From Frigoribacterium endophyticum (GTDB lineage: Bacteria; Actinomycetota; Actinomycetes; Actinomycetales; Microbacteriaceae), in the NCBI RefSeq assembly GCF_011759585.1, contig NZ_JAAOYV010000001.1, forward strand, positions 62,001 to 126,000: DNA of 64,000 nucleotides. Direction: 5' to 3'. A program made the translations under genes and the position numbers. A model generated the notes under the pieces. That model had not been told where the DNA came from, made no database searches, and worked only from the letters and a program-made list of their open reading frames with translations. Of the stretch, positions 4,116-61,582 are shown one piece after another (within the stretch, counting starts at the first letter, position 1; every line of letters starts with the position of its first letter).

Positions 4116-4219
4116 TTGGTCGGGGAGCCCCCGCGACCGGTCTCGGGGCAGGTCGCAGGGAGAACGGGCCGACCCGCGACTCCGGGGAGGGACGGGGGCT
4201 GACGTCCACACGCACTCCT

Positions 4220-4225
4220 TAGGAT
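4220..4225 (+). promoter_or_regulatory. -10 box of serS (leaderless)
   Basis: TAGGAT, then GGTCGC, then the GTG start. The 6-nt gap leaves no room for a ribosome binding site. Confidence 0.6.
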
Positions 4226-4231
4226 GGTCGC

Positions 4232-5497
4232 GTGATCGATCCCCAGCTGCTCCGAGACGCCCCCGACCTCCTCAAGGCCAGCCAGCGCGCCCGCGGCGAC
4301 TCCGAGTCGCTGGTCGACGACGCCGTGGCCGCCGACTCCGCCCGCCGTGCCGCGATCTCGGCCTTCGAGGCCCTGCGCGCCGAGCAGAACGCCTTCGGCA
4401 AGACCGTCGCGAAGGCCCCGAAGGAGGAGAAGGCCGCGCTCGTCGCCGAGGCGCAGGCGCTCGCCGCCCGCGTGAAGGAGGCGCAGGCCGCCTCGACCGA
4501 GGCCGACGCCGCGTTCGACCGGGCGATCCGCTCGCTCGGCAACCCCGTCATCGAGGGCGTGCCCGCCGGCGGCGAGGAGAACTTCGTCACCCTCCGCGAG
4601 GTCGGCACCCGCCCCGCCTTCGACTTCGAGCCGCTCGACCACGCCGACCTGGGCGAGGTGCTCGGCGCGATCGACATCAAGCGCGGCACCAAGGTGTCGG
4701 GCTCGCGCTTCTACTTCCTCCGCGGCATCGGCGCGCGGCTCGAGCTCGCGCTGATGAACATGGCGCTCGACCTCGCGGTGCAGAACGACTTCACCCCGCT
4801 GATCACGCCCACGCTCGTGCGCCCCGAGATCATGGCCGGCACGGGCTTCCTCGGCTCGCACAGCGACGAGGTCTACCACCTGCCCGCCGACGACCTCTAC
4901 CTCACCGGCACGAGCGAGGTCGCGCTCGCCGGCTACCACGCCGACGAGATCCTCGACGTCGAGGCCGGGCCGATCCGCTACGCCGGCTGGTCGACCTGCT
5001 ACCGCCGCGAGGCCGGCGCCGCCGGCAAGGACAACCGCGGCATCCTCCGCGTGCACCAGTTCAACAAGCTCGAGATGTTCAGCTACGTGCACCCCGACCA
5101 GGCCACCGCCGAGCACGACCGGCTCGTCTCGTTCCAGGAGACGATGATGCAGTCGCTCGGCCTCAACTACCGCGTCATCGACGTCGCGGCCGGCGACCTC
5201 GGCTCGAGCGCCGCCCGCAAGTTCGACATCGAGGCCTGGGTGCCGACGCAGGGCACCTACCGCGAGCTCAGCAGCACGTCGAACTGCACCACCTTCCAGG
5301 CCCGCCGGCTCGACACCCGCTACCGCACCGAGAGCGGCAAGACCGCTCCCGTGGCGACGCTGAACGGCACCCTGGCGACGACGCGCTGGCTGGTGGCGAT
5401 CCTCGAGACGCACCAGCGGGCCGACCGCTCGGTGGTCGTGCCCGAGGCGCTCCGCCCGTGGCTCGGCGGCCTCGAGGTCATCGAGCCGGTCGCGTGA
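4232..5497 (+). CDS. serS: Seryl-tRNA synthetase
   Basis: 421-aa class II synthetase that charges tRNA-Ser with serine. The N-terminal coiled-coil arm (about residues 20-110, Ala/Glu/Lys-rich) binds the long variable arm of tRNA-Ser. The class II motifs follow: [15 protein letters not shown], the motif 2 loop [21 protein letters not shown], and motif 3 [18 protein letters not shown] 4232 follows a -10 box directly. Its TGA overlaps the next gene's GTG (GTGA), so the HAD phosphatase is co-transcribed. Confidence 0.97.
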
Positions 5498-6354
5498 GCG
5501 GCGTGGGCAGCCCGACCGACGTCGCGGCCTCGGCCGCCGCCGCGGGCGTGGTCGACGGTGAGCGCTGGCTCGTCGCCCTCGACGTCGACGGCACCATCAT
5601 GCAGGAGGACGGCACGATCACCGACGGCGTCGCCGAGCAGATCCGCCGCCTGCGCGAGGCCGGCCACGCGGTGATGATCGCCACGGGCCGCTCGGTCTCG
5701 ACGACGCTGCCGGTGATGGACCGCCTCGGCCTCGTCTCGGACTACGTCGTCACCGCGAACGGGGCGATCACGCTCGGGCGCGACGAGTCGGCGCCCACCG
5801 GCTACGGGCAGGTGCACGTCGAGGAGTTCGACCCGACCGACGTGCTCACCACGATCCGCGGCGAGATCCAGGAGGGCGGCTACGCCGTCGAGGACCGCGA
5901 CGGGGTGCTGCGCTACTGCGGCTCGTTCCCGACCGTCGAGTCGAGCGGCAACGCCGAGAAGGTCGAGTTCGAGCAGCTCTTCGACCGCCCGGCGACCCGG
6001 GTGGTCGTCGTCTCGCCCGACCACGGCACCGACGACTTCCTCGAGGTCGTCGAGCGGATGGGCCTCTCGAAGGTGAACTACAACGTCGGCTGGACGGCCT
6101 GGCTCGACATCGCGCCCGACGGCGTGACGAAGGCGACGGCCCTCGAGCGGGTGCGCGAGTGGCTGGGCATCCCGCGCGAGCGCGTGTTCGCCGCCGGCGA
6201 CGGCCGCAACGACATCGACATGCTGCGCTGGGCCTCGGCCCAGGGGCGCGGCTGCGCGATGGGCCAGGCGCCCGACGACGTCTTCGCCGTCGCGAACGAG
6301 CGCACCGGCTCCGACGTCGACGACGGGCTCGCCGCGGCGCTCGCGACGCTGTAG
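5494..6354 (+). CDS. HAD-superfamily hydrolase, Cof type
   Basis: 286 aa. HAD motif I is ALDVDGTI (nucleophile and acid Asp), motif II is ATGRS, the motif III Lys lies in the GVTKATAL segment, and motif IV is [10 protein letters not shown]. The C2 cap between motifs II and III marks the Cof/phosphatase subfamily, which usually removes phosphate from sugar phosphates or cofactors; the substrate is unknown. The start is GTG 5494, overlapping the serS stop by 4 nt. The N-terminal 20 residues are Ala/Gly-rich and may be dispensable. Confidence 0.88.
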
Positions 6355-6454
6355 CGGCGGGAGCGGCTGCGGCGGCGGCAGCGGGGTCGGGGTCGAGGGG
6401 GCGACCGCCTCGCGGACCGGGGGATCCCGCCCGTGTCGCCCGCGCCTCCTCGGT

Positions 6455-6460
6455 TAGACT
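6455..6460 (+). promoter_or_regulatory. -10 box for tRNA-Ser(UGA)
   Basis: TAGACT lies 36 nt before the mature tRNA end. No clear -35 is visible. Confidence 0.4.
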
Positions 6461-6496
6461 CGGCCACGGTCGTGCGGGCTCGCCCGTCGCGCACCG

Positions 6497-6581
6497 GGAG
6501 GGCTGTCCGAGCGGCCGATGGAGCTTGTCTTGAAAACAAGTGGGCAGAGATGTCTCGTGGGTTCGAATCCCACGCCCTCCG
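6497..6581 (+). tRNA. tRNA-Ser (anticodon UGA)
   Basis: The acceptor arms GGAGGGC and GCCCTCC pair fully, followed by discriminator G. The anticodon stem CTTGT/ACAAG holds loop CTTGAAA, giving TGA, which reads UCA. A long variable arm and the T-loop GGTTCGAATCC are present, as expected for a class II tRNA-Ser. CCA is not encoded. Confidence 0.95.
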
Positions 6582-7244: not shown

Positions 7245-8801
7245 ATGATCCCCGAGACGATCGCGTGGGTGGTCGCGGCGGTGCTCGTCACCGTCGCCAC
7301 GAGCGGAGTCGCGGGTCGGGCCGGCTGGTCGGCCCCGGTCGCGCTCGTCACGGTCGGCGCCGTCGCGTCGTTCCTGCCGTTCGTGCCCGAGGTGGTGATC
7401 GAGCCCGACGCCGTGCTCTACGGGCTGCTGCCGCCGCTGCTCTTCGCGGCCGCGATCCGCACGCCGCTCGCCGACATCCGGGCCCGGCGCGACAGCATCC
7501 TCGTGCTCTCGGTCGGGGTCGTCGTGGTCACCCTCGCCGTCGTCGGCTTCGCGCTCTGGGCCCTCGTGCCCGCGGTGGGCCTCGCCGCGGCGCTGGCGCT
7601 CGGCGCCGTGGTCGCCCCGACCGACGCCGTCGCCGTCCAGGCTGTCGCCGGCAAGGCCCGCCTGCCCCGCCGCGTGCTCTCCATCCTCGAGACCGAGAGC
7701 CTCCTCAACGACGCCACGGCGCTCGTCGCCCTCAACACCGCCATCGCGGCCGTCGTCGGCGTCGTGCACCCGATCGAGGTGGGCGGCGAGTTCCTCCTGG
7801 CGGTCGGTCTCGGCGTGGGCATCGGCCTCCTGGTCGGCTTCGGGTTCTCGGTCGTCCGCCGCTTCCTCCACTCGCCGGTGCTCGACACGAGCCTGTCGCT
7901 CGTCGTGCCCTTCGTCGCGTTCGTGCCGACGCAGGAGATCGGCGGCAGCGGCGTGCTCGCCGTCGTCGTGGCCGGGCTCTGGCTCGGCTGGCGGGCCCCG
8001 CTGATCCAGTCGCCCGAGGCGCGCATCGCCGAGTCGGTCAACTGGCGCACGATCCAGTTCCTGCTCGAGAACGCGGTCTTCCTGCTCATCGGGCTGAGCC
8101 TGTCGGGCATCGTGCGCGGCCTCCGCCGCTCGAGCCTCGACGGGGTGCAGATCACCGGGGTCGTCGTCGCCCTCCTCGTCGTCCTGGTGGCGTCGCGCTT
8201 CATCGCCGTCGGCCTCGCGAAGGTGCTCTTCGACCACGGGCCGCGGGCGCTGCGCGAGCGCTCGTGGAACTGGCGCACCGTCACCGCCGTGTCGGCCGCC
8301 GGCATCCGCGGCGTGGTCACGCTCGCCGCCGTCTTCCTCCTGCCCGCCGAGACGCCCGAGCGCGAGCTGCTGCAGTTCCTCGCCTTCGCGGTGGTCGTCG
8401 GCTCGCTGCTGCTCGGCCTCTTCCTCCCGCCGATCATCCGGGCGCTCCGCCTGCCCCGCACCGCCGACCTGCAGGAGGAGTCCGACCGCGACCGCCTCCT
8501 CGACGAGGCCAGGGCGGCGGGCCTGGAGGCCCGGCGCGAGGCGAAGGAGTCGCGGGTCGACGAGCAGGGCGAGCCGGCCGTCGGGGCGGCCGGCCGCGAC
8601 GAGTCCGACGACCTCACCGACCTCACGGGCGAGCGGCTCGAGCACGACCGGGTGCGGCGCCGCATGATCGAGGCCGAGCGGGCCGCCGTGCTCGCGGTGC
8701 GAAGGGAGCACCGCTACCCGGAGACCGCGGTGCGCCAGGTGCTCGAGCTCATCGACGCCGAGGACGTCGCCCTGCGCCGCCGCGAGGGGCCCCGCGAGTA
8801 G
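7245..8801 (+). CDS. Na+/H+ antiporter, CPA1 family
   Basis: 518-aa membrane protein with about 12 hydrophobic segments up to residue 410 and a hydrophilic, charged cytosolic tail (residues 415-518). Family signatures are APTDAVAVQ and ETESLLNDATALVAL (the ND ion-binding pair), and SAAGIRGVVTLAAVF in the later helices. CPA1 proteins exchange Na+ (or K+/Li+) for H+ in pH and salt homeostasis. The start is ATG 7245, since the helix-forming N-terminus MIPETIAWVVAAVL follows at once. Upstream codons in this frame overlap tRNA-Ser and arfB. Confidence 0.9.
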   Translation: MIPETIAWVVAAVLVTVATSGVAGRAGWSAPVALVTVGAVASFLPFVPEVVIEPDAVLYGLLPPLLFAAAIRTPLADIRARRDSILVLSVGVVVVTLAVVGFALWALVPAVGLAAALALGAVVAPTDAVAVQAVAGKARLPRRVLSILETESLLNDATALVALNTAIAAVVGVVHPIEVGGEFLLAVGLGVGIGLLVGFGFSVVRRFLHSPVLDTSLSLVVPFVAFVPTQEIGGSGVLAVVVAGLWLGWRAPLIQSPEARIAESVNWRTIQFLLENAVFLLIGLSLSGIVRGLRRSSLDGVQITGVVVALLVVLVASRFIAVGLAKVLFDHGPRALRERSWNWRTVTAVSAAGIRGVVTLAAVFLLPAETPERELLQFLAFAVVVGSLLLGLFLPPIIRALRLPRTADLQEESDRDRLLDEARAAGLEARREAKESRVDEQGEPAVGAAGRDESDDLTDLTGERLEHDRVRRRMIEAERAAVLAVRREHRYPETAVRQVLELIDAEDVALRRREGPRE

Positions 8802-8832: not shown

Positions 8833-9519
8833 ATGGCCACCGTCATCCTCGTCCGTCACGGGCGCACCACCGCCAACGCGAGCGGAGTCCTCGCCGGGCG
8901 CACCCCGGGCGTCCTGCTCGACGACGTCGGGCGCCAGCAGGCCGTCCGCACCGGCGAGCGGCTCGCCGTCGTGCCCCTAGTCTCCGTCGTCTCGAGCCCG
9001 CTCGAGCGCTGCCGCGAGACCGCGGGGTACATCGTCGACCGGCAGGAGGGCAGCCCGACGACCCCGGTCGAGGAGGGCATCTCCGAGTGCGACTACGGCG
9101 ACTGGCAGGGCCGCACCCTGAAGGAGCTCAGCGCCGAGCCGCTCTGGGCGACCGTGCAGGGGCAGCCCTCGGCCGTGACCTTCCCCGGCGGCGAGTCCAT
9201 GGCGGGCATGCAGGCCAGGGCGGTGGCGGCGATCCGTCGCCACGACGCCGCCGTCGAGGCGGAGCACGGCCCGGGCGCCGTCTGGGTCGCGGTCAGCCAC
9301 GGCGACATCGTCAAGTCGGTGCTCGCCGACGCGCTCGGCATGCACCTCGACCTCTTCCAGCGCATCGCGGTCGGCCCGGCGTCGGTCTCGATCGTCCGGT
9401 ACGGCACGAGCCGCCCCGAGGTCCTCGCGACCAACACCGACTCGGGCGACCTCTCGTGGCTGCGCGCGGCGGCGCCCGCGGCGGACGCCGCCGTCGGGGG
9501 AGGCGCGGGGCACGAGTGA
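8833..9519 (+). CDS. Histidine phosphatase, MSMEG_4193-type
   Basis: 228 aa of the histidine phosphatase (phosphoglycerate mutase-like) superfamily. The phosphohistidine motif LVRHGRT is at residues 6-12, SSPLERCRETA supplies the second Arg, ISECDYGDW matches the family, and VSHGDIVK carries the catalytic second His. The substrate is unknown. It is the first gene of a trio with DUF3090 and SCO1664 family genes, an arrangement widespread in actinobacteria, which suggests a shared but uncharacterised role. The C-terminal Ala/Gly-rich tail ends in a GGAGGCGCGG motif (9499). Confidence 0.88.
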   Translation: MATVILVRHGRTTANASGVLAGRTPGVLLDDVGRQQAVRTGERLAVVPLVSVVSSPLERCRETAGYIVDRQEGSPTTPVEEGISECDYGDWQGRTLKELSAEPLWATVQGQPSAVTFPGGESMAGMQARAVAAIRRHDAAVEAEHGPGAVWVAVSHGDIVKSVLADALGMHLDLFQRIAVGPASVSIVRYGTSRPEVLATNTDSGDLSWLRAAAPAADAAVGGGAGHE

Positions 9520-9611
9520 CGACCGGCACCGTCGACGAGGCGGCCAGCCCGCCCGCCGGCACCGCGACTCCCGCCCTGCACGCAGCCTGAGCCGGGCCGG
9601 CCCGCCGCTCG

Positions 9612-14531: not shown

Positions 14532-14901
14532 GCGAGCGACGGTACGCCTGACCACCGACGTCCACCAGGGCCCGGGGCGGGCGCCGTGCCGGCTCGTAGC
14601 CCGCACCCAGGGAGCGGGCGGCCCGCTGCCAGCCCGGATGCGGGAGACGTGCAGCCACCGTGCCCGCGACTCCCACGGCTCCCGGTGCGAGCTCGCAGGA
14701 GGCGCGGGCCGGGTCGGCCGGAGGGGGGACGACGGGCGTGCCCCCACCCCCGAAGACGGGCGGCGTCGGCACCGCACGGGGGCTTGAGGCGCACGGGGGC
14801 CCGTGCTGCACTGACGGCACCAGGTCGGCGTCACCCGCGTCCGTCGCCTGGTCGACGGGTGCTCCGCCCCGCCGCCCTCCCCACCGAACGGAACCCACCC
14901 C
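14532..14901. other. Intergenic region between divergent AAA+ and GH6 genes
   Basis: The 370-nt stretch holds the AAA+ promoter at its left end and a copy of the GGAGGCGCGGGCCGGG motif at 14698-14713. The GH6 promoter is not evident. No gene is supported here; frames lack start signals and conserved residues. Confidence 0.5.
14539..14544 (-). promoter_or_regulatory. -10 box of the AAA+/VWA operon
   Basis: TACCGT, 7 nt before GTG 14531. Confidence 0.55.
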
Positions 14902-15933
14902 GTGACCTCCCTCGCCCGCCGGGGCCTGGTGCTCGGGGCCGCCGTCGCGCTCGCGACCGGCCTCGTCGCCGTGCCCACCGCCTCCCCTGCAGACCCCGCG
15001 GCCGCGGCGACCGCCGCGTCGTCCGCGACCGTCACCTCCGCCACCATCCGCACGGCCTCGGCCGGCACCGTCTACCGCGGCGGCCTCTACGTCGACCCGA
15101 CCGGCGCCGCCGCGACGGCGGCCGCGCAGCTGCAGGCTGCAGGCCGCACCACGGAGGCCGCCGCGGCCCGGACGATCGCCGACCAGTCGATCGCGACCTG
15201 GCTCGGCAGCTGGTACGACGACGTCATGCTGGTGAAGGTCGTGCAGCGCACCCTCGCCGCCGCCGAGGCGAAGGGGCGCACGCCCGTCTTCGTCACGTAC
15301 GAGATCCCCGGCCGCGACTGCGGCGGCTGGTCGGGCGGCGGGGCGGTCGACGACGCCGCCTACCTGCGCTGGAACCAGCTCGTCGCCGACACCCTCCGGG
15401 GCCACCGCGCCGTCGTGCTCGTCGAGCCCGACTCGCTCGGCCACCTCGGCTCGTGCCCCGAGACGACCACGACCCGGACCGCGACCCTCGCCGCCGCCGT
15501 CGCGGCCCTGGCCGACGCGGGCGTGCCCGCCTACCTCGACGGCGGCAACTCGAACTGGGTCGCGCCCACCGAGATGGCCGCCCGGCTGAAGGCGGCGGGC
15601 GTCGACCGCGCCCGGGGCTTCTTCACGAACGTCGCGAACTACTACGGCGTCGACCCGGAGCGGGCCTACGCCGACAAGGTCTCGGCGGCGCTCGGCGGCA
15701 CCCACTACGTCATCGACGTGTCGCGCAACGGGCGGGGCTGGAAGGGCACCTGGTGCAACGCCCCCGGTGCGGGCCTCGGCCAGACCCCGCGCGTGACGGG
15801 CGGCACCACCGGGCTCGACGCCCTGCTCTGGGTGAAGACGCCGGGAGCCAGCGACGGGCCCTGCAACGGCGGCCCCCCGGCGGGGCAGTGGTACCCGGCG
15901 TACGCGGTCGCGCTGGTCGCGAACCGGAAGTAG
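14902..15933 (+). CDS. Secreted GH6 endoglucanase/cellobiohydrolase
   Basis: 343 aa with a Sec signal peptide (RR, hydrophobic residues 8-25, Ala-rich cleavage region near 35). The GH6 signatures follow: YEIPGRDCGGWS (catalytic-loop Asp139), VLVEPDSLG (Asp177), YLDGGNSNW, and WVKTPGASDGPCNGGPP with GQWYPAYA. GH6 enzymes cut beta-1,4-glucan with inversion. No cellulose-binding module is present. GTG 14902 is the first start giving a full signal peptide. It is convergent with the kinase gene, 20 nt away. Confidence 0.92.
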   Translation: MTSLARRGLVLGAAVALATGLVAVPTASPADPAAAATAASSATVTSATIRTASAGTVYRGGLYVDPTGAAATAAAQLQAAGRTTEAAAARTIADQSIATWLGSWYDDVMLVKVVQRTLAAAEAKGRTPVFVTYEIPGRDCGGWSGGGAVDDAAYLRWNQLVADTLRGHRAVVLVEPDSLGHLGSCPETTTTRTATLAAAVAALADAGVPAYLDGGNSNWVAPTEMAARLKAAGVDRARGFFTNVANYYGVDPERAYADKVSAALGGTHYVIDVSRNGRGWKGTWCNAPGAGLGQTPRVTGGTTGLDALLWVKTPGASDGPCNGGPPAGQWYPAYAVALVANRK

Positions 15934-15953
15934 GAGGCGCGGCGCGGGCAGGG

Positions 15954-17753
15954 TCAGTCGGTCGCCGTGCCGGGGCCCTTGCCCTTGTCCTTGCCGTTGC
16001 CGTTGCCCGGCCCGGTGACGACGGTGGCGTCCACGCCGGGCACAGCGGCGCCGGCGCCGGTGGGCTTGCCGTTGCCGTTGCCGTTCCCGTTGTTGCCGGT
16101 GCCGGTGCCGGTGCCCTGGCCGGGCACGGTGCCCGACGGCGGCGTCGCCTGGCCCGGACCGCCCTCGTCCTCGTCGGGCTCGTTCTCGTCCTCGTCCGGC
16201 TCCTCCTCCGACGGCGCGGGCGCCGTCGTCTCCGGCGCGGGAGCGGGCGCCACGGTCGGCTCCGTGCTCGGCTCCCCGGCGGGGGCCTCCTCGCTCGGCG
16301 CGACGCTCGGCTCCGGGCTGGTCTCGGTCGTCTCGACCGGCCTGCTCGGGTCGTCGGCGGGGTCGCTGCCGCGGCCTGCGCCGAGGGCGAGGGCCACGGC
16401 GGCCAGCACGGCGAGCAGCACGACGGCGACGACCACTCCGACCAGCACGCGACGGCGGCCGGGCCGTTCGTCGTCGCCCCCGGCGCTGCGCGCGGCCCCC
16501 GAGGAGGCGCGGGTCGACCCGAGCGGGGAGGTCGCGGCCCCGGCTGCCCCGGCCCCCGCGGCGACCCCGGCCGAGCCCGCCTCGGCGAAGCGCCGCGTGG
16601 GGGCGTCGTCGGACGGGAGCGCCCGGGTGGGGGCGTCGCCGGCGCCGGCCGCGGGGTCGAGACGGGCCGTCGGGGAACCTCCGGCGGGGAAGCGGGCGGT
16701 GGGGGCGTCGCCGGCGGGCATCGCGCCGGTCGGCTGGTCTGCTCCGGCGGCCGCAGTCGCGGCAGCGGCAGTCCCAGCGCCCGCGGCGAGGCCGGCACCG
16801 GCGGCCAGGCCCGCCACGGCAGCGCCACCGGCCCCGCGCCCGTCGCTGGTCGCCCCGGGGGCCGTCGCCGCGCCTCCGGCACCCGCTCCTGCTCCCGCGG
16901 TCACGACGGGCGCAGCCGCAGCGCGCGCCTCGCGCAGCACGTCGAGGGCGGTCGGGCGGGCCGCGGGGTCGCGGGCCGTCATCGCGGTGAGCAGGGCCTG
17001 CCAGTCGGCGCCGACCGACGCTGGGACGACCGGGTCGCGGCTCAGGCGGGCGCTCAGTGACTCCATCAGCGTGCCCGGGAACTCGCGGCGGCCCGTGACG
17101 ACCTCGAGCAGCACGAGGCCGAGCGACCAGATGTCGGAGGCCGTGCCGACGTCGCCGCCGAGGGCCTGCTCCGGGCTGAGGTAGGCCGCGGTGCCGAGCA
17201 CGGAGCCCGGCGCCGTCAGCCGCGTCGCGCCGCTGAGCTGGGCGATGCCGAAGTCGGCGAGCAGCGCGCGGAACTCCTGGCCCGGGACGGGCGACGGCGC
17301 GAGCAGCACGTTGCCCGGCTTCAGGTCGCGGTGCACGATGCCGGCGGAGTGGACGACGTGGAGGGCCTCGGCGAGGTCGGCGGCCATCCGCTGCACCTCG
17401 TCGCCCGCGACGGGGCCGTCGTGCAGGCGCCGGTCGAGGGTGGGGCCGTCGACGAGCTGCATGACGAGGTAGGGGCGCTCGTCGCCGTCCACGACCGCGA
17501 CGTCGGCGTCGTAGAGGGTCACGAGGGCGTGGTGCTCGAGCGAGGCGAGCAGGTCGATCTCGGAGTGCGCGCGCCGCAGGTCGTCCGCGTCGCCGCTGTT
17601 CGGCGCGAGCAGCTTCAGCGCCACCGGGCGCCGGAGGGCCGTGTCGACGGCGCGGTACACGGTGGCCATGCCCCCGCGCCCGAGGACGCCGTCGAGTCGG
17701 TAGCGGTCGCCCAGGAGGGCGCCGCTCAGGTCACGGCTGCGGTCGTCGCCCAT
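15954..17753 (-). CDS. Transmembrane serine/threonine protein kinase
   Basis: 599 aa. The kinase domain (about 15-275) has LGRGGMATVYRA, VALKLL, IVHRDLKPGNVLL, LADFGIAQL and AYLSPEQ. An Ala/Gly/Pro/Thr linker (290-440) with repeated APTAR/APTRR units precedes one membrane helix LVGVVVAVVLLAVLAAVALAL. The outer part is Glu/Pro/Thr-rich, then Gly/Asn-repeat (GNGNGNGK) to the C-terminus, with no PASTA domains. ATG 17753 has GGAGGG 6 nt upstream and a TACAGT -10 box at 17781-17786. It is divergent from an LCP gene, fitting an envelope role. Confidence 0.9.
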   Translation of the reverse strand: MGDDRSRDLSGALLGDRYRLDGVLGRGGMATVYRAVDTALRRPVALKLLAPNSGDADDLRRAHSEIDLLASLEHHALVTLYDADVAVVDGDERPYLVMQLVDGPTLDRRLHDGPVAGDEVQRMAADLAEALHVVHSAGIVHRDLKPGNVLLAPSPVPGQEFRALLADFGIAQLSGATRLTAPGSVLGTAAYLSPEQALGGDVGTASDIWSLGLVLLEVVTGRREFPGTLMESLSARLSRDPVVPASVGADWQALLTAMTARDPAARPTALDVLREARAAAAPVVTAGAGAGAGGAATAPGATSDGRGAGGAAVAGLAAGAGLAAGAGTAAAATAAAGADQPTGAMPAGDAPTARFPAGGSPTARLDPAAGAGDAPTRALPSDDAPTRRFAEAGSAGVAAGAGAAGAATSPLGSTRASSGAARSAGGDDERPGRRRVLVGVVVAVVLLAVLAAVALALGAGRGSDPADDPSRPVETTETSPEPSVAPSEEAPAGEPSTEPTVAPAPAPETTAPAPSEEEPDEDENEPDEDEGGPGQATPPSGTVPGQGTGTGTGNNGNGNGNGKPTGAGAAVPGVDATVVTGPGNGNGKDKGKGPGTATD

Positions 17754-23521: not shown

Positions 23522-24228
23522 AGATACTGATCGCCGACGACGACCCGCAGATCCTGCGGGCGCTCAAGGTGACCCTGGGGGCCCGGGGGTACGAGATCCA
23601 CACCGCGGCCGACGGCCGCGAGGCGCTCGACGCCGTCGTCGCTCACCGCCCCGACCTGGTGATGCTCGACCTCGGCATGCCGCGGCTCGACGGGGTCGAG
23701 GTGATCGCGGGCATCCGCGGCTGGTCGACCGTGCCGATCCTCGTGGTCTCGGGGCGCACCGACGCGGCCGACAAGGTCGAGGCGCTCGACGCGGGCGCCG
23801 ACGACTACGTGACGAAGCCGTTCGCGATGGAGGAGCTGCTGGCCCGGCTCCGGGCGCTCACGCGGCGGCTCGCGCCCGGCGACGACGACGCCCCCGTCGT
23901 GGCCTTCGGCGACGTGCGGGTCGACCTCTCGTCGACCACCGTCACCCGGGGCGGCGAGACGGTGCGGCTGACCCCGACCGAGTGGCGCGTGCTCGAGCTG
24001 CTGCTGCAGAGCCCGGGCAAGCTCGTCACCCGTGAGACCCTGCTGACGCAGGTATGGGGTCCGTTCCACGCGAAGGACACCGGGTACCTCCGCCTCTACT
24101 TCGCGCAGCTGCGCAAGAAGCTCGAGCCGGTGCCCGCGACTCCGCGCTACCTCGTGACCGAGCTCGGCATGGGCTACCGCTTCCTGCCCGACGAGACCCC
24201 CGCGGGGGAGGCCCGCCCCGAGTCCTAA
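23518..24228 (+). CDS. kdpE: Response regulator KdpE
   Basis: 236 aa, OmpR/PhoB type. The receiver has acidic DDD at residues 7-9, the phosphoacceptor Asp51 in VMLDLGMPR, and Lys in VTKPFAMEEL. The C-terminal winged helix has LTPTEWRVLELL and YLRLYFAQLRKKLE. It is the DNA-binding partner of KdpD. GTG 23518 overlaps the kdpD TGA (GTGA), so both are translated from one message. The downstream target is plausibly the permease gene 96 nt later. Confidence 0.93.
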   Translation: MKILIADDDPQILRALKVTLGARGYEIHTAADGREALDAVVAHRPDLVMLDLGMPRLDGVEVIAGIRGWSTVPILVVSGRTDAADKVEALDAGADDYVTKPFAMEELLARLRALTRRLAPGDDDAPVVAFGDVRVDLSSTTVTRGGETVRLTPTEWRVLELLLQSPGKLVTRETLLTQVWGPFHAKDTGYLRLYFAQLRKKLEPVPATPRYLVTELGMGYRFLPDETPAGEARPES

Positions 24229-27718: not shown

Positions 27719-27749
27719 TTGGCCCGCGCCTCCCGCGCTCCTGTACATC
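27719..27749 (+). promoter_or_regulatory. Promoter of glgX
   Basis: TTGGCC, a 19-nt spacer, then TACATC (27744-27749), 6 nt before ATG 27756. The sequence also carries the CCGCGCCTCC motif (27724-27733). Confidence 0.4.
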
Positions 27750-27755: not shown

Positions 27756-29822
<2,067 letters not shown>

Positions 29823-29913
29823 GGGGCCTGCCGGAGGCGCGGGCCGGCCACCCGGGGGAGACCCCGGTGGCCGTGCCCCCGCCTCCGCTCCCGCCCCCGC
29901 CTCGTCGGCGGGG

Positions 29914-33279: not shown

Positions 33280-33339
33280 GGAGTCGCGGGTCGGGTCGGG
33301 CCAGGACCTCCCGGAGCCGCACGGCGAGCACCCGCCCAC

Positions 33340-36481: not shown

Positions 36482-36606
36482 GCAGCACAGGGGCCTCCCG
36501 GGCGACGCCCAGTTCGGGGAGCCCCGGGACGGGGGAGCCCGGAGGCGGGGGAGGCACGGGTCGGGGAGGCGCGGGTCGGGCCGTGGTCGGGCCGTCGCCG
36601 ACGCGG

Positions 36607-44695: not shown

Positions 44696-44733
44696 GGAGG
44701 CGCGGGTCGGGCACCAGCCCGGCCCGCGCCTCC
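44696..44733. terminator. Hairpin made of two facing GGAGGCGCGGG motifs
   Basis: Arms of 17 bases pair with one wobble and a 4-nt loop. It lies between convergent GH30 and LuxR genes and so can serve as terminator; both arms are copies of the dispersed motif. Confidence 0.75.
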
Positions 44734-50326: not shown

Positions 50327-50961
50327 CGCGCCGCGGCGGCCTGCGCGCCCGCGGCGCCCGACGTCGCGAGGTCGCTCTTCTCCAGCGGCTGGCCGGCACC
50401 GAGGGCGGCCGTCCACGCGTCCGTCGTCGCGACGACGGCGAAGTTCGAGTGCAGCAGCGCCATCAGGGTCGTGTGCACGGTCTCGGCGTCGACGGTGCCG
50501 GCGGCGTTCGCGATGCTGATCGCCCCCGTCGCGTCGGAGAGGACCTCCACGGCGACGCCGTGCGCCTCGGCGTCGGCGGCCGACGCGACGATGCAGTTGT
50601 TGGTCATGTAGCCGACCAGGGTGACGGTGTCGATCTCGGAGTCGCGGAGGACGCCCAGGAGGTCCGTGTGCGCGAACACGGAGCTGTACTGCTTCGTGAC
50701 GGCGTGCCAGTCGTCCCGCCGACGCCGCTCGACCTCGGGGTGCAGCGCGAAGCGGTCCGTGCTCGGGTCGAACACCGGAGCGCCCTCGCCGGCGGTGTGC
50801 TGCACGACGACGACCAGGGCCCCGGCGTCGGTGGCGGCGTCGATCGCCGCCCCGATCCGCTCCAGCGAGTCGGCGACGGGCGGGTGCTGGATCTCGAGGG
50901 GGCCGTCGAAGTACTCCTGCTGGACGTCGACGACGACGAGGGCGCGGGTGGGGGTGGTCAT
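50323..50961 (-). CDS. Cysteine hydrolase, isochorismatase-like
   Basis: 212 aa. The triad is visible: Asp in VVDVQQEYF, Lys in TKQYSSVF and Cys in YMTNNCIVASA. The family includes nicotinamidases and isochorismatases; the substrate is not clear because the metal-site His residues of nicotinamidase are not obvious. ATG 50961 starts the domain. The gene lies downstream of a member of the small repeated family (51078). Confidence 0.85.
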   Translation of the reverse strand: MTTPTRALVVVDVQQEYFDGPLEIQHPPVADSLERIGAAIDAATDAGALVVVVQHTAGEGAPVFDPSTDRFALHPEVERRRRDDWHAVTKQYSSVFAHTDLLGVLRDSEIDTVTLVGYMTNNCIVASAADAEAHGVAVEVLSDATGAISIANAAGTVDAETVHTTLMALLHSNFAVVATTDAWTAALGAGQPLEKSDLATSGAAGAQAAAAR

Positions 50962-51077
50962 GGTGCCTCCTGGCTGGGCGGGGCGGCGCGGGTGCGTCGT
51001 GACGATCCTCGCTGCTGACCCGCGACTCCACCGGCACCACCCCGCCGGTTGCTCGAGACCTCCGACCCAGCTGTCGC

Positions 51078-52605: not shown

Positions 52606-55600
52606 ATGCCCTCATCCCCCCGGCGCCGCACGGTCGCCACCACCTCGATCGTGACGGCGGGCCTCCTCGCCGCCCTCACCGGCCTGGGCACGGTCGCCCC
52701 GGCCGCCGCGGCGCCGACGGCCGGGGAGGTGGCCGCGGCGCAGACGGTCACCGAGGGCGACGCCCGCTTCCAGGTGCTGTCGCCCACCCTCATCCGCACC
52801 GAGTTCGCGCCGGGCGGCGCGTTCACCGACGCCGCGACCTTCAACGTCGTCGGCCGCGACTCCTTCGCGGCGACGCCGTTCACCACGACGCGCGACGACG
52901 GCTGGCTGACCATCGACACGGGGGAGGCGCGGGTCCGGTACGAGATCGGCTCCGGCTCGTTCGACCAGGGCAACCTGGAGCTCAGCCTCACGACGGGCTC
53001 GGGCCAGCAGGTCGTGGCCGCGCCCTGGCAGCAGGACGACCCCGCGCGCTGCGTCGTGGGCGTCCGCTGCGAGGCCGAGACCCTCGACCTCGTCGGGCTC
53101 GCCCCCGCCACGAACCACACCGGCGCGACCGGCGACGGCTTCGTCGCCGGCTTCGAGCGCGTCGGCGACGCCGCGAGCTTCTCGGTGGCCGCCGAGCAGG
53201 CCGGCCCCCACGACCTCGTCCTCCGCTACGCGAACTCGCAGGGCGGCGACGGCCAGGTCACGACGCGCACCCTCAGCGTCACCGTCGACGGCGGCGCCGC
53301 GCAGACCATCTCGCTGCCGCCGACCGCGGGCTGGGACGACTGGGCGCTGGCCCGGGCGACCCTCGACCTCGCCGAGGGCGAGCACGACGTCGTCGTCGAG
53401 CGCGCCTCCGGCGACTCGGGCAACCTCAACCTCGACGGCGTCGCCGTCGTCGAGCCCGGCGCGGCGTACCCCGCCGAGGCGCCCGCCGCCGTCGAGACCG
53501 TCGACTGCGCGTACGGTGCCCCGTGCGAGGCCGAGACGACGGCCCTGGCCGGCGGCGCGAGCGTCGGCGACGACCACGACGGCGCCTCCGCCGAGGCGTT
53601 CGCCGCCGGCCTCGGCCGTGGCGCGTCGTTCACGGCGCACGTCACGGGCGTGCCCGCGGGCGAGCACGTGCTGCAGATCCGCTACGCGAGCGCGCAGCCC
53701 GACGCGCGCACCGTCTCGGTCAGCACCGGTGCCGGCACCGTGACCACCGCCTCCCTCGAGCCCACCAGCGGCTGGGACCACTGGCGGACCGTCAGCGTGC
53801 CCGTCACCCTGTCGGAGGGCGAGGACGACGTCACCGTCGGCTGCCCCGACGACGCGAGCTGCCAGCTCAACGTCGACACCGTCGCCGTCGCCTCGGCCGC
53901 CGCGCCGCTGCTCGCCCCGCACGCCGCGCTCGGCGGCTACCGTCGCGACCTCGACACCGCGAACGGCACCGTCGACACGAACGCCGGCCTGCTCTACCAG
54001 GACGGCTGGTCGCTCGTCGACGACAGCGCCTCGGCGCAGTACGACGAGGCCACCGAGACCCTCACGCCGCGACCCGTCGCCGACGTCCAGGACGGCTACC
54101 TCTTCGCCGCGGGCGACGACCACGAGACGGCCCTCGGCGACCTGGCCACCCTCACCGGCCCCTCGGTGCTGCTGCCCCGCTGGGCCTACGGCGTCTGGTA
54201 CTCCGAGTACTACGACCGCACGCAGTCCGACTTCACCGACACGATCGTGCCGCGCTTCGCCGAGGAGGGCGTGCCGCTCGACGTGCTCGCCGTCGACACC
54301 GACTACAAGGCGCCCGACAAGTGGAACGGCTGGGAGGTCGACGAGACGAGGTTCCCCGACATGGCGGGCTTCCTCGCCGGGCTCGAGGAGCAGGGCGTCC
54401 ACAACACGCTGAACGTGCACCCGAGCATCACGCAGGGCGACCCGCAGCTGCCCGCGGCCCAGGCCACGGCGCAGGGGAACCTCATCCCGGACGGGGAGCG
54501 CTTCCTGTTCGACTGGTCGGACCCGGCGCAGCTGCAGGCGTACTTCGACCTGCACGACGAGATCGCCGACCAGGGCGTCGACGTCTTCTGGCTCGACTGG
54601 TGCTGCAGCGACGCGTCGCGGTACTCGCAGCCCGGCGTCACGCCCGACGCCTTCATCAACGAGCAGTACGCGCAGCGCACGGCCGACCGCATCGGCCGCG
54701 GCTTCGCCTTCTCGCGGGCCTACGGCGCCCTGACCGCGGGCGGCTACGGCAACCCTCAGCCGGTGCCGACCGGCCCCTGGGCCGACAAGCGCACCACGCT
54801 GCACTTCACCGGCGACACCACGTCGACGTGGCAGATGCTGCAGGCGCAGGTCGGCTACACCCCGGGCGAGTCGGCGGCGACCGGCCTCTCGGCGATCAGC
54901 CACGACATCGGCGGGCACACCGGCGGCACCACCTTCCCGGGCGCGGAGACCGAGAGCACGAAGCTCGCCGACGACCTCTACGCGCGGTGGGTGCAGTTCG
55001 GCACGTTCCAGCCGATCGACCGCCTGCACAGCAACCACAGCGACCGGCTGCCCTGGCAGTACGGCGCGGCGGCCGACGCCTCCGCGACCTCGTTCCTGGA
55101 CCTGCGCGAGGCGCTGATGCCGCTCACCTACACGCTGTCGGCGGAGGCCACGCGCACCGGCGTGCCCGTCGTCCGGCCGCTCTACGTGCAGTACCCCGAG
55201 CAGCAGGAGGCCTACGCCATGGCCGGCAGCGAGTACCTGTTCGGCCCCGACGTGCTCGTCGCCCCGGCGGTGACGCCCGGCGAGACCGCCACGACCCGCG
55301 TGTGGTTCCCCGAGGGCAGCACCTGGACGGACTGGTTCACGGGCGAGACGCACGCCGGCGGCACCACCGCCGACGTCACGACCGGCCTCGACGCCATGCC
55401 CGTGTTCGTCCGCTCGGGCGGCGTCGTCGCGACGCGGAGCGCCGACGTCGCGAACGACGCGACCCCGCTGACCGAGCTCACGCTCACGGCGGCGACCGGC
55501 AGCGACGGCGCCTTCTCGCTCTACGAGGACGACGGCGTCAGCGCCGACCTCACCGCCTCGGCCCGCACGGCCGTGACGTACACGGAGCAGGCCGACGGCG

Positions 55601-56117: not shown

Positions 56118-56163
56118 ACGACGGAGGCGCGGTGCAGGTCGACCTGCACCGCGCCTCCGTCGT
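56118..56163. terminator. 46-nt perfect palindrome with facing GGAGGCGCGG motifs
   Basis: Arms 56118-56140 and 56141-56163 are exact complements. It lies between convergent genes and contains the dispersed motif in each arm. Confidence 0.8.
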
Positions 56164-57916: not shown

Positions 57917-58034
57917 GCTCGACACAGGCCATGAACTCGGGGAGTCGCGGGTCGGCAGCCCGGATCTCTCTCGCTTTCCCGAGACAGCCTGGCCCGGCGC
58001 CCGCCCGGGTCCCGGCAGGCACACCCCGCCGCCG

Positions 58035-59051
58035 CTAGCCGCGCTGCACCGCCTCGAACGCCGCCCGCGCCGCCGCCGCGACGAGCGCGTCGTCGTACGC
58101 CGCCGCGGGGTCGGTCCGCGTCGTCAGCACGGCGATCACCACGGGGTCACCACCCGGCCGCGTCACGACCGCGACGTCGTTCCGGACCGGCCCCGCGCCT
58201 CCGGACTTGTCGGCCACGGCCCAGCCCTCGGGCGCCCCGGCCCGGACGAGCGCGTCGCCCGTCGCGTTGCCCGTCATCCAGTCGAGCAGCTGGGCGCGGT
58301 CGTCGTCGCCGAGCCACTCGCCCGCGACGACCCGGGCCAGCAGGCCCCGGACGGCGGCGGGCGTGGTGGTGTCGGCCGTGCTCCCGGCCGTCGGGCGGTT
58401 GAGCTCGGGCTCGCCGTGCACCACGTCGGTGACGTCGTCGCCCTGGGCCGCGAGGGCCGCGTCGAGGGCGGCCGGCCCGCCGAGGTGCTCGACGACGAGG
58501 TTCAGCGCCGTGTTGTCGCTCTGCCGCACCGCGGCCTCGGCGAGCTGCCCGAGGGTCAGGCCGGTGCCCGTGGCGGCGCTCGTGGCGGGGGAGTACCCGG
58601 CGGCTGTCACGTCGCCCGCCGTCCAGGTCACGACCTCGTCGAGGTCGGCCGGCTCGGTCGCGTCGAGCAGCGCGGCGGCGGCCAGCGCCTTGAGGCTCGA
58701 GGCGTAGAGGAACCGTTCGTCGCCGCGGTGCTCGAGGGCCCGACCCGTGCCGGTGTCGACGACGCTGAGGCCGACGCGGGCTCCGTGCTCGGACTCGAGG
58801 GCGGCCAGGGCGGCGTCGAGCTCGGGGTCGTCGACCACCGTCGTGGCCGGTGAGGTCGGCGAGGGAGTCGCCCCCGCACTGGTCGACGTCGTCGAGGAGT
58901 CGCGGGTCGGCTCCCCGGGGCCGGCGCCCGAGCCGGCGTCGGCCGTCGTGCACCCGGCCAGCGCCACGACGAGGGCGAACCCGGCACCGCTCGCGGCGGA
59001 GAGGCGGCGGACGACGGGGCGGGGGAGGCGCGGTGACGGAGAGCGGATCAT
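58035..59051 (-). CDS. Class A-like beta-lactamase, lipoprotein
   Basis: 338 aa. The lipobox LAGC puts the lipid on Cys34. The penicillin-binding signatures are YASSLKAL (active Ser118, Lys121), RQSDNTALN (SDN), GEPELN (the Glu-x-x-Leu-Asn loop) and ADKSGG (KSG in place of KTG). Those motifs are the class A set. Substrate range cannot be read; an envelope-modifying relative is possible. ATG 59051 is chosen because it gives a standard lipoprotein signal. Confidence 0.88.
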   Translation of the reverse strand: MIRSPSPRLPRPVVRRLSAASGAGFALVVALAGCTTADAGSGAGPGEPTRDSSTTSTSAGATPSPTSPATTVVDDPELDAALAALESEHGARVGLSVVDTGTGRALEHRGDERFLYASSLKALAAAALLDATEPADLDEVVTWTAGDVTAAGYSPATSAATGTGLTLGQLAEAAVRQSDNTALNLVVEHLGGPAALDAALAAQGDDVTDVVHGEPELNRPTAGSTADTTTPAAVRGLLARVVAGEWLGDDDRAQLLDWMTGNATGDALVRAGAPEGWAVADKSGGAGPVRNDVAVVTRPGGDPVVIAVLTTRTDPAAAYDDALVAAAARAAFEAVQRG

Positions 59052-59428: not shown

Positions 59429-59450
59429 CGCGCGACGGAAGGGCTCGCCC

Positions 59451-60144: not shown

Positions 60145-60337
60145 CGCACCGTCCTCCCGTCCTCGGCCGGGACATCGATGCGAGCCCCGTCCGACCAGCG
60201 TGAGCGTCGAAGAGGCCGAGAAGAGCCGTGCCCCGGCGATCTGTGGAGGGGACACCTTGTGGAGAACTCCACCCCGCCGACGTCGCCCCCCGGTGGACGT
60301 CTCCTGGGAGTCGCGACACGTGTCGTCCGCACGCCAC

Positions 60338-60343
60338 TACCGT
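60338..60343 (+). promoter_or_regulatory. -10 box of the lipoprotein gene
   Basis: TACCGT, 7 nt before ATG 60351. It decides the start, since the frame is open further upstream. Confidence 0.55.
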
Positions 60344-60350
60344 CCAGCCC

Positions 60351-61193
60351 ATGAGCCAGACACGAGAACGACTCACCACAGCTCTCCTCGTCGCCGGCGT
60401 CCTCGGCCTCGCCGCCGGGTGCACCTCCGACGACCAGGTCAGCGCTGCCCCGGCGGCCACGGACGTGGCCCCGACACCGGGCGCGACGGCCTCACCGACG
60501 CCCGTCGAGGCCGCCAGCCCGGAGGAGGCGCTGGTCGCCGAGTACCTCGACGCCGCCGTCGCGGGAGACGCGGCTGCCGCCTGGCAGCTCCTGACCCCGC
60601 AGGCCCAGCAGTTCTACTCGACCGAGCAGACCTTCGCGGGGCTCTTCGGCCGCGACGGAACGGTCTCCGCCGACGAGGCCGGCCAGCTGCTCGCCGGCGA
60701 CATGGTGTCGAGCGAGGGCCCCGAGGGCGCCTTCACCCTCGTCAGCGTGACCACCGACTCCGAGGCCGACGCCTGGGTCGTGCGGGCCGTCGACGGCGAC
60801 CCCGCCGACCTGCGCATCGACGACGCGGGCGTGCCGCCGACGGGCGGGTCGCTGTACGAGTGGCGGAACCCCGCGGCGGGCGCGGAGGACGCTCGCTACG
60901 AGGCAGGCCCCGCCGCCCTCGACGCCAGCCGCCCCGCGACCCTCTCGTTCGCGAGCCCCGCGAGCACGGACAGCGACGTCCCGTCGACCATCGGCTACCC
61001 CGACGCCCTGTACGGCTGGGTCGACGGCGCCTCCGTGCCCGTCGAGCTCGGCGCCGCCGCGGGGTCGGAACGCCAGTTCACCGCCGACGTCGAGCCCGGC
61101 CAGGGGGCTCCGACGGCCCTCACCGTCGTCTGGGAGACCGGCCTCGGTGGCGGGACCCCCGCCTCCTGGCGCAGCAGCACCGTCCTGCTCTAG
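60351..61193 (+). CDS. Lipoprotein of unknown function
   Basis: 280 aa. The signal LLVAGVLGLAAGCTS ends with a lipobox Cys at residue 24. An Ala/Pro/Thr linker precedes a helical domain VAEYLDAAVAGDAAAAWQLLTPQ, resembling the NTF2-like stalk found in many actinobacterial lipoproteins, and a beta-rich rest of the protein. No specific family. Confidence 0.75.
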   Translation: MSQTRERLTTALLVAGVLGLAAGCTSDDQVSAAPAATDVAPTPGATASPTPVEAASPEEALVAEYLDAAVAGDAAAAWQLLTPQAQQFYSTEQTFAGLFGRDGTVSADEAGQLLAGDMVSSEGPEGAFTLVSVTTDSEADAWVVRAVDGDPADLRIDDAGVPPTGGSLYEWRNPAAGAEDARYEAGPAALDASRPATLSFASPASTDSDVPSTIGYPDALYGWVDGASVPVELGAAAGSERQFTADVEPGQGAPTALTVVWETGLGGGTPASWRSSTVLL

Positions 61194-61244
61194 CACCGCC
61201 GACCGCGACCGCGACCACGACGCCGAGGCCGGCGCCGACGACCC

Positions 61245-61493
61245 TCAGCCGCGGGCGGCCGACTGCGCGACCGCGTGGTCGGCCTGCTCGCGGCTCAGCT
61301 CGGTGAGGCCGCCGCAGTTGCTGCACCGGTTCAGCCAGCGCTTCCGCAGCGTCACGAGCGGCACGAAGAAGAGCGTCGCCTTCGTGGCGTGCTCCTCGAC
61401 CTGCTGCGGCACCGTCTTGTCGCAGAACCGGCAGGCGAAGACGACCACGGCGAGCACGCGGCTCTTCACGGTGGTGCCGAAGAGGATGAACAT
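61245..61493 (-). CDS. Zinc-ribbon protein
   Basis: 82 aa with two CxxC pairs: ACRFCDK and NRCSNCGG, and a hydrophobic middle TLFFVPLVTLRKRW. Small zinc-ribbon membrane-associated proteins like this are common in actinobacteria; function unknown. ATG 61493 begins MFILFGTTVKS. Confidence 0.75.
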   Translation of the reverse strand: MFILFGTTVKSRVLAVVVFACRFCDKTVPQQVEEHATKATLFFVPLVTLRKRWLNRCSNCGGLTELSREQADHAVAQSAARG

Positions 61494-61537
61494 CGGTCGA
61501 CCGTAGCCGCCCGGCCTGCGAGGCGGCGCGGTGGGGG

Positions 61538-61582
61538 GCAGGAGGCGCGGGCCCTTCCCTGGGACGCGCCCGCGCCTCCTGC
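61538..61582. repeat. Facing GGAGGCGCGGG motifs in a divergent region
   Basis: 15-bp stem GCAGGAGGCGCGGGC and its complement, 15-nt loop. It lies between divergent genes, so it is not placed as an ordinary terminator. Confidence 0.75.

What the first reader, a model, noticed from the sequence alone, without database searches (positions are those of the whole stretch)
4169..61582. Dispersed motif GGAG(G/T)CGCGGGTCGG, single and as facing pairs
By eye the 13-mer GGAG(G/T)CGCGGGTC occurs at 4169, 7305, 8546, 16503, 33280, 36565, 44696, 51017, 52923, 57941 and 58896 on both strands, in all kinds of genes and between genes. The shorter GGAGGCGCGG core occurs about 20 times, several-fold more than base composition predicts by my rough estimate. 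Facing pairs make hairpins at 44696, 56118 and 61538. Repeated short words in coding and intergenic DNA, doubled in terminators, are the pattern of DNA-uptake sequences in Neisseria and Pasteurellaceae, but other genome-wide signals are possible. I know no such signal described for these bacteria.
Basis: partly seen in the sequence, partly recalled or inferred. Interest (0 to 1): 0.75.

Follow-up and report, generated by a model that had tools for sequence, protein, structure and literature searches.

The report
Genome-wide DNA word in Frigoribacterium
This bacterium's genome is sprinkled with well over a thousand copies of one short DNA word that resembles, in most measurable ways, the 'self' tags that some unrelated bacteria use to choose which free DNA to take up; whether it really guides DNA uptake here is untested.

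Summary
The genome belongs to Frigoribacterium (Microbacteriaceae). The core GGAG(G/T)CGCGG occurs 1677 times in it, its reversal 188 times. In a 26% sample it is in excess inside genes (300 sites; about 44 after synonymous codon shuffling), in nearly every phase and on both strands. It is about four times denser between genes, most of all just after stop codons. It has no strand polarity and no conserved flanks, and changes by point substitution. The 15-mer has 33-175 copies in 15 of 15 congeners and at most 2 in 44 of 44 other genomes. Of 14 facing pairs, 13 lie within 82 bp of a gene's 3' end. This is close to the genomic signature of Neisseria/Pasteurellaceae uptake sequences, and does not fit Chi/KOPS, a mobile repeat, codon usage or Shine-Dalgarno. 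Many other Microbacteriaceae carry another word, GGATGCC, near baseline in Frigoribacterium: perhaps a dialect change, but it behaves differently between genes. Uptake is unproven. ComEA, ComEC and Flp/Tad genes are present, but three congeners lack type IVa pilus genes and keep the word. My paper searches found no published uptake word for this family.

The parts
4169..4183 (-). full 15-mer GGAGTCGCGGGTCGG (core 4174-4183), intergenic by my gene caller
7305..7319 (+). full 15-mer, T form, in gene 7245-8801
8546..8558 (+). 13-mer, T form, in gene 7245-8801
16503..16515 (+). 13-mer, G form, in gene 15954-17753 (-)
33280..33294 (+). full 15-mer, T form, intergenic
36565..36579 (+). full 15-mer, G form, intergenic; one-mismatch copy directly before it at 36550-36564
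44696..44733 (.). facing pair (cores 44696-44705 + and 44724-44733 -) between convergent genes; hairpin, terminator-like position
51017..51029 (-). 13-mer, T form, intergenic
52923..52935 (+). 13-mer, G form, in gene 52606-56106
56123..56158 (.). facing pair (cores 56123-56132 + and 56149-56158 -) between convergent genes; hairpin
57941..57955 (+). full 15-mer, T form, intergenic
58896..58910 (+). full 15-mer, T form, intergenic by my gene caller
61541..61579 (.). facing pair (cores 61541-61550 + and 61570-61579 -); flanking gene calls are short and divergent, so not a 3' gene end
6440..6449 (-). 10-bp core, G form, intergenic
9499..9508 (+). core, G form, in gene
9562..9571 (-). core, T form, intergenic
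14664..14673 (-). core, T form, intergenic
14698..14707 (+). core, G form, intergenic
15933..15942 (+). core, G form, at the last base of gene 14902-15933
16868..16877 (-). core, G form, in gene
19315..19324 (-). core, T form, in gene
24134..24143 (-). core, T form, in gene
27296..27305 (-). core, G form, intergenic by my gene caller
27724..27733 (-). core, G form, intergenic
29810..29819 (-). core, G form, at the 3' end of gene 27756-29822
29833..29842 (+). core, G form, intergenic
32368..32377 (-). core, G form, in gene
35804..35813 (+). core, T form, in gene
38464..38473 (-). core, G form, in gene
39895..39904 (+). core, G form, in gene
41638..41647 (+). core, G form, in gene
43394..43403 (+). 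core, T form, in gene
50638..50647 (+). core, T form, in gene
52854..52863 (-). core, T form, in gene
58193..58202 (-). core, G form, in gene
59024..59033 (+). core, G form, intergenic by my gene caller

Best explanation
The word is most likely a DNA-uptake sequence. A competence machine of Frigoribacterium (a surface pilus, the DNA receptor ComEA, the channel ComEC) would take up DNA that carries AGGAG(G/T)CGCGGGTCGG or close variants better than other DNA. Recombination of the imported strand would then slowly enrich the word wherever the genome tolerates it: in all gene phases, and more strongly between genes. Two neighbouring copies that face each other make hairpins, kept at gene ends, probably as transcription terminators. 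Shown: the enrichment and its distribution, genus specificity, lack of strand polarity, change by substitution, near absence from one probably acquired region, presence of pilus, comEA and comEC genes. Inferred: that uptake is biased by the word, that this bias built the pattern, that the hairpins terminate transcription. The pilus and the receptor are not identified.
For: Copy number 1677 against 188 for the reversed word. Excess beyond codon usage and peptide sequence: GGAGGCGCGG 229 in genes against about 31, GGAGTCGCGG 71 against about 13, in all six phases for the G form and five of six for the T form, in 217 of 802 called genes and 63 peptides. 300 of 460 sites (65%) in genes; G-form density 1.15 per kb between genes against 0.30 in them. 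No polarity: chi2 33.2 over 41 stretches, p 0.80. Near-random spacing: 172 bins of 5 kb, mean 2.66, variance 2.79. Facing pairs closer than 40 bp: 14, holding 28 of 460 sites, 13 of 14 within 82 bp of the 3' end of a called gene. A paper on uptake sequences lists the same traits: 65% (H. influenzae) and 35% (N. gonorrhoeae) inside reading frames, not palindromes, about 10% as inverted repeats, more in non-coding DNA than expected, no orientation bias (PMC1939737, passages). Some one-base neighbours are also raised, as a tolerant receptor would allow. Genus-wide: 33-175 copies of the 15-mer in 15 of 15 congeners, at most 2 in 44 of 44 other genomes. In congener G015 no 15-mer is listed between 2031676 and 2492836 (100 of 111 places listed), and three 20-kb samples there hold 0, 1 and 0 cores, against 47 in 80 kb elsewhere. 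comEA and comEC, Flp/Tad genes and a type IVa pilus cluster are present. Natural transformation is reported for two other Microbacteriaceae (PMC11577799, passages), and Flp/Tad pili are needed for transformation in the actinobacterium Micrococcus luteus (PMC6370729, passages).
Against: No experiment. PilB-type ATPase and PilM are missing in G002, G003 and G006, which keep 131-175 copies of the 15-mer, so the type IVa pilus is not needed to keep the word unless it was lost recently (age of loss not tested). ComEC was found in 60 of 60 genomes examined, with or without a word. The word is most concentrated at 3' gene ends (2.6-3.7 per kb within 75 bp), more than drive in unconstrained DNA alone predicts; PMC1939737 says that most known uptake sequences are not biased to sites downstream of genes. 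Four other genera sampled have a word (GGATGCC) that is less dense between genes than in them and hardly paired, so the family-level dialect picture is not clean. Between species, 15 of 43 aligned sites are intact against about a quarter of random 10-mers, a weak difference. Between G013 and G015 sites are kept about as often as random 10-mers (92 of 95 against about 92.5%).
Confidence: 0.5

Rival explanations
1. A word maintained by DNA methylation and repair, like the HIP1 sequences of cyanobacteria: a resident methyltransferase and a linked repair bias create and keep the sites, and lineages swap one word for another when the enzyme changes.
For: HIP1 is also a short GC-rich word at high frequency, replaced by an alternate word in some genomes (PMC4390886, abstract and outline only), much as GGATGCC is near baseline in Frigoribacterium while GGAG(G/T)CGCGG is high. 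No pilus is needed, which fits the congeners without type IVa genes.
Against: HIP words are palindromic; this word is not. About ten fixed bases is long for a methyltransferase target (general knowledge). The four-fold intergenic excess and the concentration at 3' gene ends are not predicted. No methyltransferase was searched for.
Confidence: 0.15
2. Terminator-driven: the word is chiefly an RNA or DNA signal at gene ends (half of a terminator hairpin, or a stop signal of its own), and copies inside genes are by-products.
For: Highest density just after stop codons; 13 of 14 facing pairs near gene 3' ends; genus g139 has a related palindrome that is nearly all intergenic and paired.
Against: 300 of 460 sites are in genes, on both strands, 7 times the codon-shuffle count; only 28 of 460 sites are in close facing pairs.
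Confidence: 0.12
3. A binding site for an intracellular chromosome protein (Chi or KOPS-like signal, nucleoid or segregation protein).
For: Genome-wide, near-random spacing, genus-wide.
Against: No strand polarity (chi2 33.2 on 41 stretches), which Chi and KOPS would show; intergenic excess; near absence from one large region of G015.
Confidence: 0.1
4. Copies of a mobile repeat (REP/MITE type) or tandem expansion.
For: Facing pairs; a few tandem arrays (L052).
Against: No conserved flanks beyond about -1 to +16; in 80 kb between two close congeners all three site differences are single substitutions, none an insertion; inner stems of the pairs differ.
Confidence: 0.03

Closest known systems
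DNA uptake sequence (DUS) of Neisseriaceae and its dialects (PMC3630211: abstract, outline, results section 6)
   Same: Non-palindromic word of about 10 bases in the order of a thousand or more copies; dialects by genus or clade; known to form facing pairs in terminators (PMC1852404 and PMC13020248, passages).
   Different: Different phylum; GC-rich word; no ComP-type receptor identified; type IVa pilus genes missing in 3 of 16 genus members that keep the word; the other common word of the family shares only GGA at its start; stronger concentration at 3' gene ends.
Uptake signal sequence (USS) of Pasteurellaceae (PMC12616744 and PMC1852404, passages)
   Same: Genome-wide, both strands, about 65% in genes in H. 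influenzae (PMC1939737) as here; paired copies in terminators.
   Different: USS is AT-rich around a 9-base core with a longer spaced motif; here no spaced AT-rich part.
HIP1 of cyanobacteria (PMC4390886, abstract and outline)
   Same: Highly iterated GC-rich word, replaced by an alternate word in some genomes.
   Different: HIP1 is palindromic and associated with methyltransferases; this word is not palindromic; methyltransferases not examined.

Membership tests
DNA uptake sequence (DUS/USS) | Short word, about 9-12 bp, in roughly 1000 or more copies, far above expectation | tested here: met
   1677 copies, reversal 188; 353 against 42 and 107 against 18 in 864 kb, order-5 Markov
DNA uptake sequence (DUS/USS) | Not a palindrome, no orientation bias | tested here: met
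   sequence; chi2 33.2 over 41 stretches, p 0.80; 855 and 822 by strand. Position of the replication origin not located.
DNA uptake sequence (DUS/USS) | In genes and between them, with intergenic excess | tested here: met
   (own approximate gene calls)
DNA uptake sequence (DUS/USS) | A minority as inverted pairs in terminator positions | tested here: met
   14 close facing pairs, 13 within 82 bp of a 3' gene end; termination itself not tested
DNA uptake sequence (DUS/USS) | Not generally biased to sites downstream of genes (PMC1939737) | tested here: not met
   2.6-3.7 per kb within 75 bp of 3' ends, 0.9-1.5 within 100 bp of 5' ends. A described trait, not a definition.
DNA uptake sequence (DUS/USS) | Dialects that follow the phylogeny of the family | tested here: inconclusive
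   genus-wide word; another word in many other genera, but with a different distribution; no tree was built
DNA uptake sequence (DUS/USS) | Preferential uptake of DNA with the word by naturally competent cells | not testable with these tools
   competence known in two other Microbacteriaceae (PMC11577799, passages)
DNA uptake sequence (DUS/USS) | Dedicated receptor (minor pilin such as ComP) | tested here: inconclusive
   minor-pilin-like genes present in the own genome, but PilB/PilM genes missing in 3 of 16 genus members that keep the word; no binding test
Chi / KOPS | Strand polarity along the chromosome | tested here: not met
   also mixed strands along G015
HIP1-type word | Palindrome | tested here: not met
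   the word is not palindromic
HIP1-type word | Matching methyltransferase | not tested
   none searched
REP/MITE-type repeat | Conserved element longer than the word; presence or absence by insertion | tested here: not met
Intrinsic terminator element | Most copies in hairpins between genes | tested here: not met
   28 of 460 sites in close facing pairs; 300 of 460 in genes

The most novel reading that the evidence does not exclude
Self-recognition by DNA-uptake words has arisen in Gram-positive actinobacteria as well. Many Microbacteriaceae would be tagged with GGATGCC, while Frigoribacterium (and perhaps one species of a second genus, G461) changed to GGAG(G/T)CGCGG and thereby cut itself off from gene exchange with its relatives.
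Probability: 0.33. Interest if true: 0.87.

Novelty: new member of a known kind. Interest (0 to 1): 0.72.

Why it matters
In the papers I looked at, uptake words are described for two proteobacterial families. A genome-wide word with much the same anatomy in an actinobacterial genus, and another word in many other genera of its family, would make it possible to ask whether such tagging evolves repeatedly, which pilus reads it, and whether a change of word isolates lineages genetically. It would also suggest how to bring DNA into a large group of environmental bacteria.

Tried and rejected
Codon usage and codon context: rejected by synonymous shuffles and phase counts. The same k-mer screen also found GCAAGTCGACGCT, which encodes the Walker A motif GKSTL (my reading; 10 sites, 9 in called genes): peptide repeats do show up, but look different.

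Shine-Dalgarno: rejected, no rise just upstream of gene starts (0.92 per kb in the first 25 bp). Polar signals: rejected. Mobile repeat: rejected.

I first took the g139 word (CTGGAGGCGCG) for a dialect. One search showed GGAGGCGCG there to be mainly a terminator-like palindrome without excess in genes (27 against 26.8), and I withdrew that reading; the longer CTGGAGGCGCG does have 11 in genes against 3.2, so a small genic part is not excluded.

Listings seemed to show strand polarity in some genomes; in fetched 20-kb stretches of four genera both strands carry the word, so I took listing order as the cause. Two sets are less even than chance alone (G024 chi2 11.0 on 5 stretches; g139 GGATGCC 37.4 on 23).

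Conservation of sites between species (15 of 43 aligned sites intact over four relatives, about a quarter for random 10-mers; 28-31 of 40 sites unaligned) is too weak to use. ComEC presence says nothing either way.

Paper searches for an uptake word in this group listed none by title and abstract start; the library lacks preprints and most subscription journals.
Full report
What was checked. The 13-mer GGAG(G/T)CGCGGGTC is present at all positions given, plus 27959. In the window the 15-mer with up to two mismatches occurs 37 times against a mean of 5.8 in dinucleotide shuffles; GGAGGCGCGG occurs 25 times against 1.55 and GGAGTCGCGG 15 times against 0.59 under an order-3 Markov model. The three facing pairs exist.

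Whose genome. The window is C1:62001-126000 of a 3.32-Mb genome, G000. Its ComEC is closest to Frigoribacterium, and contigs of congeners have the lengths of named Frigoribacterium contigs: G011:C1 1394648 = sp. PhB116, G004:C1 1906797 = sp. PhB160, G012:C1 1422920 = F. faeni AS3.2, G013:C5 1464855 = sp. Leaf8 (against 26). The window also encodes an ice-binding-like protein.

Genome-wide count. The exact 15-mer occurs 160 times (84/76 by strand), its reversal 0 times. The 10-mer GGAG(G/T)CGCGG occurs 1677 times (855/822), its reversal 188 times. In a sample of 864 kb (window plus 40 stretches of 20 kb) GGAGGCGCGG has 353 copies against 42 and GGAGTCGCGG 107 against 18, order-5 Markov.

Anatomy. 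GGAG is nearly strict. Position 5 is G or T. Later positions are looser (for example position 8 C to G 59 against 22; position 9 G to T 76 against 23; position 10 G to C 57 against 34). Preferences reach from about -1 (A) to +16; beyond that flanks are nearly unconstrained. So this is a short word, not part of a longer repeat.

Not codon usage. With genes called by my own codon-model script (802 genes, 88% coding; approximate), 229 G-form and 71 T-form sites lie in genes; 50 synonymous-codon shuffles give about 31 and 13. The excess appears in all six phases for the G form (e.g. antisense phase 1: 24 against 0.6; sense phase 0: 38 against 1.1) and in five of six for the T form (sense phase 1: 0 sites); 217 of 802 genes and 63 peptides are involved.

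Where. Density of the G form is 0.30 per kb in genes and 1.15 per kb between them; by class 29 sites in 16.7 kb convergent, 67 in 48.2 kb tandem, 24 in 35.2 kb divergent. For both forms it is 2.6-3.7 per kb within 75 bp of gene 3' ends and 0.9-1.5 per kb within 100 bp of 5' ends. Spacing is close to random. Fourteen facing pairs are closer than 40 bp; 13 lie within 82 bp of the 3' end of a called gene (one of these also inside a called gene), and their inner stems differ. I infer terminator use, as known for uptake words (PMC1852404 and PMC13020248, passages). A few tandem arrays carry the word (L052).

No polarity. Across 41 stretches the strand split is as even as chance (chi2 33.2, p 0.80). 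This speaks against Chi- or KOPS-like polar signals.

How sites change. Congeners G013 and G015 differ by 0.86% over 80 kb; 46 of 47 and 46 of 48 sites are shared (random 10-mers: about 92.5%) and the three differences are single substitutions, none an insertion. Against four more distant congeners 28-31 of 40 window sites do not align, and 15 of 43 aligned sites are intact, about a quarter for random 10-mers.

Who has it. The 15-mer: 33-175 copies in 15 of 15 congeners, at most 2 in 44 of 44 other genomes. AGGAGGCGCGGG: 217 copies here (reversal 8), at most 19 in 395 other genomes of the order. In eight named Frigoribacterium loci (171 kb) GGAG(G/T)CGCGG has 54 sites in genes against 7.6; in 14 named loci of other Microbacteriaceae 8 against 8.3. 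In 150 family genomes of 85 genera it is high in the three Frigoribacterium drawn and raised also in g139 (730/153 and 715/161), G461 (443/175) and G518 (463/254). In g139 GGAGGCGCG is mainly a palindromic, terminator-like repeat: 88 of 115 sites intergenic, 30 facing pairs, 27 in genes against 26.8; the longer CTGGAGGCGCG has 11 in genes against 3.2. In G461 it is in genes, 8 against 1.7 (80 kb). The T form is frequent in G000 but rare in the congeners sampled.

A second word in the family. Four other genera sampled (G016, G021, G022, G024; 100 kb each) showed GGATGCC-type words, weakest in G024. GGATGCCSS exceeds its reversal at least 4.5-fold, with at least 0.2 per kb, in 81 of 147 non-Frigoribacterium family genomes (51 of 84 genera; median ratio 6.2), but only 1.2-1.5-fold in the three Frigoribacterium. 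The reversal is not a neutral control: in the class table most genomes outside the family also exceed it, about two-fold. Among those 282 genomes, by my reading by eye, the largest ratio is about 4.5 (G580) and the density stays at or below about 0.2 per kb. In genes the word is about 2.5-3.4 times the codon-shuffle count in the four species. Unlike the Frigoribacterium word it is less dense between genes than in them and hardly paired. It may be the older word of the family that Frigoribacterium replaced, or something else; I leave this open. In g161 one species (G461) has a Frigoribacterium-like excess, with GGATGCC at shuffle level in the 80-kb sample though GGATGCCSS is 3.1-fold genome-wide, while another (G526) has GGATGCCSS at 5.6-fold.

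Possibly foreign DNA. In G015 no 15-mer is listed over 461 kb (100 of 111 places listed; the rest fit beyond 3.40 Mb, where 80 kb hold 6); three 20-kb samples from the gap hold 0, 1 and 0 cores, and it contains two further secretion-ATPase hits and one below cut-off. That it was acquired is my inference.

Machinery. The genome has comEA and comEC between leuS and a probable holA (my reading of ORFs); a Flp/Tad cluster with T2SSE, T2SSF, TadE and Tad hits (the last just below its cut-off) and a 60-aa DUF4244 protein that resembles by eye the M. luteus Flp sequence printed in PMC6370729; and a type IVa pilus cluster beside a gene that I take to be rpoC. Pfam supports PilB, a second ATPase, a pilin, PilM and PilO; one minor-pilin-like protein has a sub-threshold methylation-motif hit; two others and PilN have none; PilC and the prepilin peptidase were named from sequence and position, not scanned. 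PilB- and PilM-type genes are missing in G002, G003 and G006, which keep the word, in genes too for G003 (21 against 3.1). ComEC is in 60 of 60 genomes that I chose. So the uptake route, if any, is more likely Flp/Tad or something shared. Natural transformation is documented in Rhodoluna and Aurantimicrobium of this family (PMC11577799, passages).

Judgement. The traits match the published list for uptake sequences (PMC1939737, passages) better than any rival, except for the bias to 3' gene ends. Function is not shown. I put 0.5 on an uptake word, 0.15 on a methylation-linked word of the HIP kind, 0.12 on terminators as the main cause, 0.1 on an intracellular site, 0.03 on a repeat, the rest on the unforeseen.

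Noticed in passing
L200-L219 and many family genomes: GGATGCC-type words are strongly over-represented in many Microbacteriaceae genera but not in Frigoribacterium, g157 or some others; on both strands and mainly in genes.
   Followed up: partly
G439 and G509, genus g139 (L141-L150, L186-L199): Palindromic intergenic repeat: overlapping over-represented 13-mers around GGACTGGAGGCGCGGTGCCAGCTGGCACC and its complement, 30 facing pairs in 477 kb; terminator-like or REP-like.
   Followed up: partly
L184 2512-15404 (own genome C2:912512-925404): Type IVa pilus cluster in an actinobacterium, beside a probable rpoC, with three minor-pilin-like proteins by position, one with weak Ig-like similarity.
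   Followed up: partly
G015 C1:2031676-2492836 (L177-L179): About 461 kb without a listed copy of the 15-mer, GC 67-69% in three samples, with further secretion-ATPase hits: perhaps an acquired island.
   Followed up: partly
L168-L171 against L180-L183: G013 and G015, held as separate species, are 99.1% identical over 80 kb.
   Followed up: no
L052 5800-5930 and 6424-6560: Tandem arrays of 33-bp units (inside a called gene) and roughly 24-bp units (intergenic), each unit carrying the word.
   Followed up: no
L049 10709-10912: Seven runs of 10-35 G or C within about 200 bp, between called genes; possibly an assembly artefact.
   Followed up: no
window 62208-63485 and 58035-58838: Ice-binding-like protein (PF11999) and a beta-lactamase-family protein (PF13354).
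   Followed up: no
G457 and G522 (genus g157): No excess of either word, although ComEC is present; the system may be lost or a third word used.
   Followed up: no
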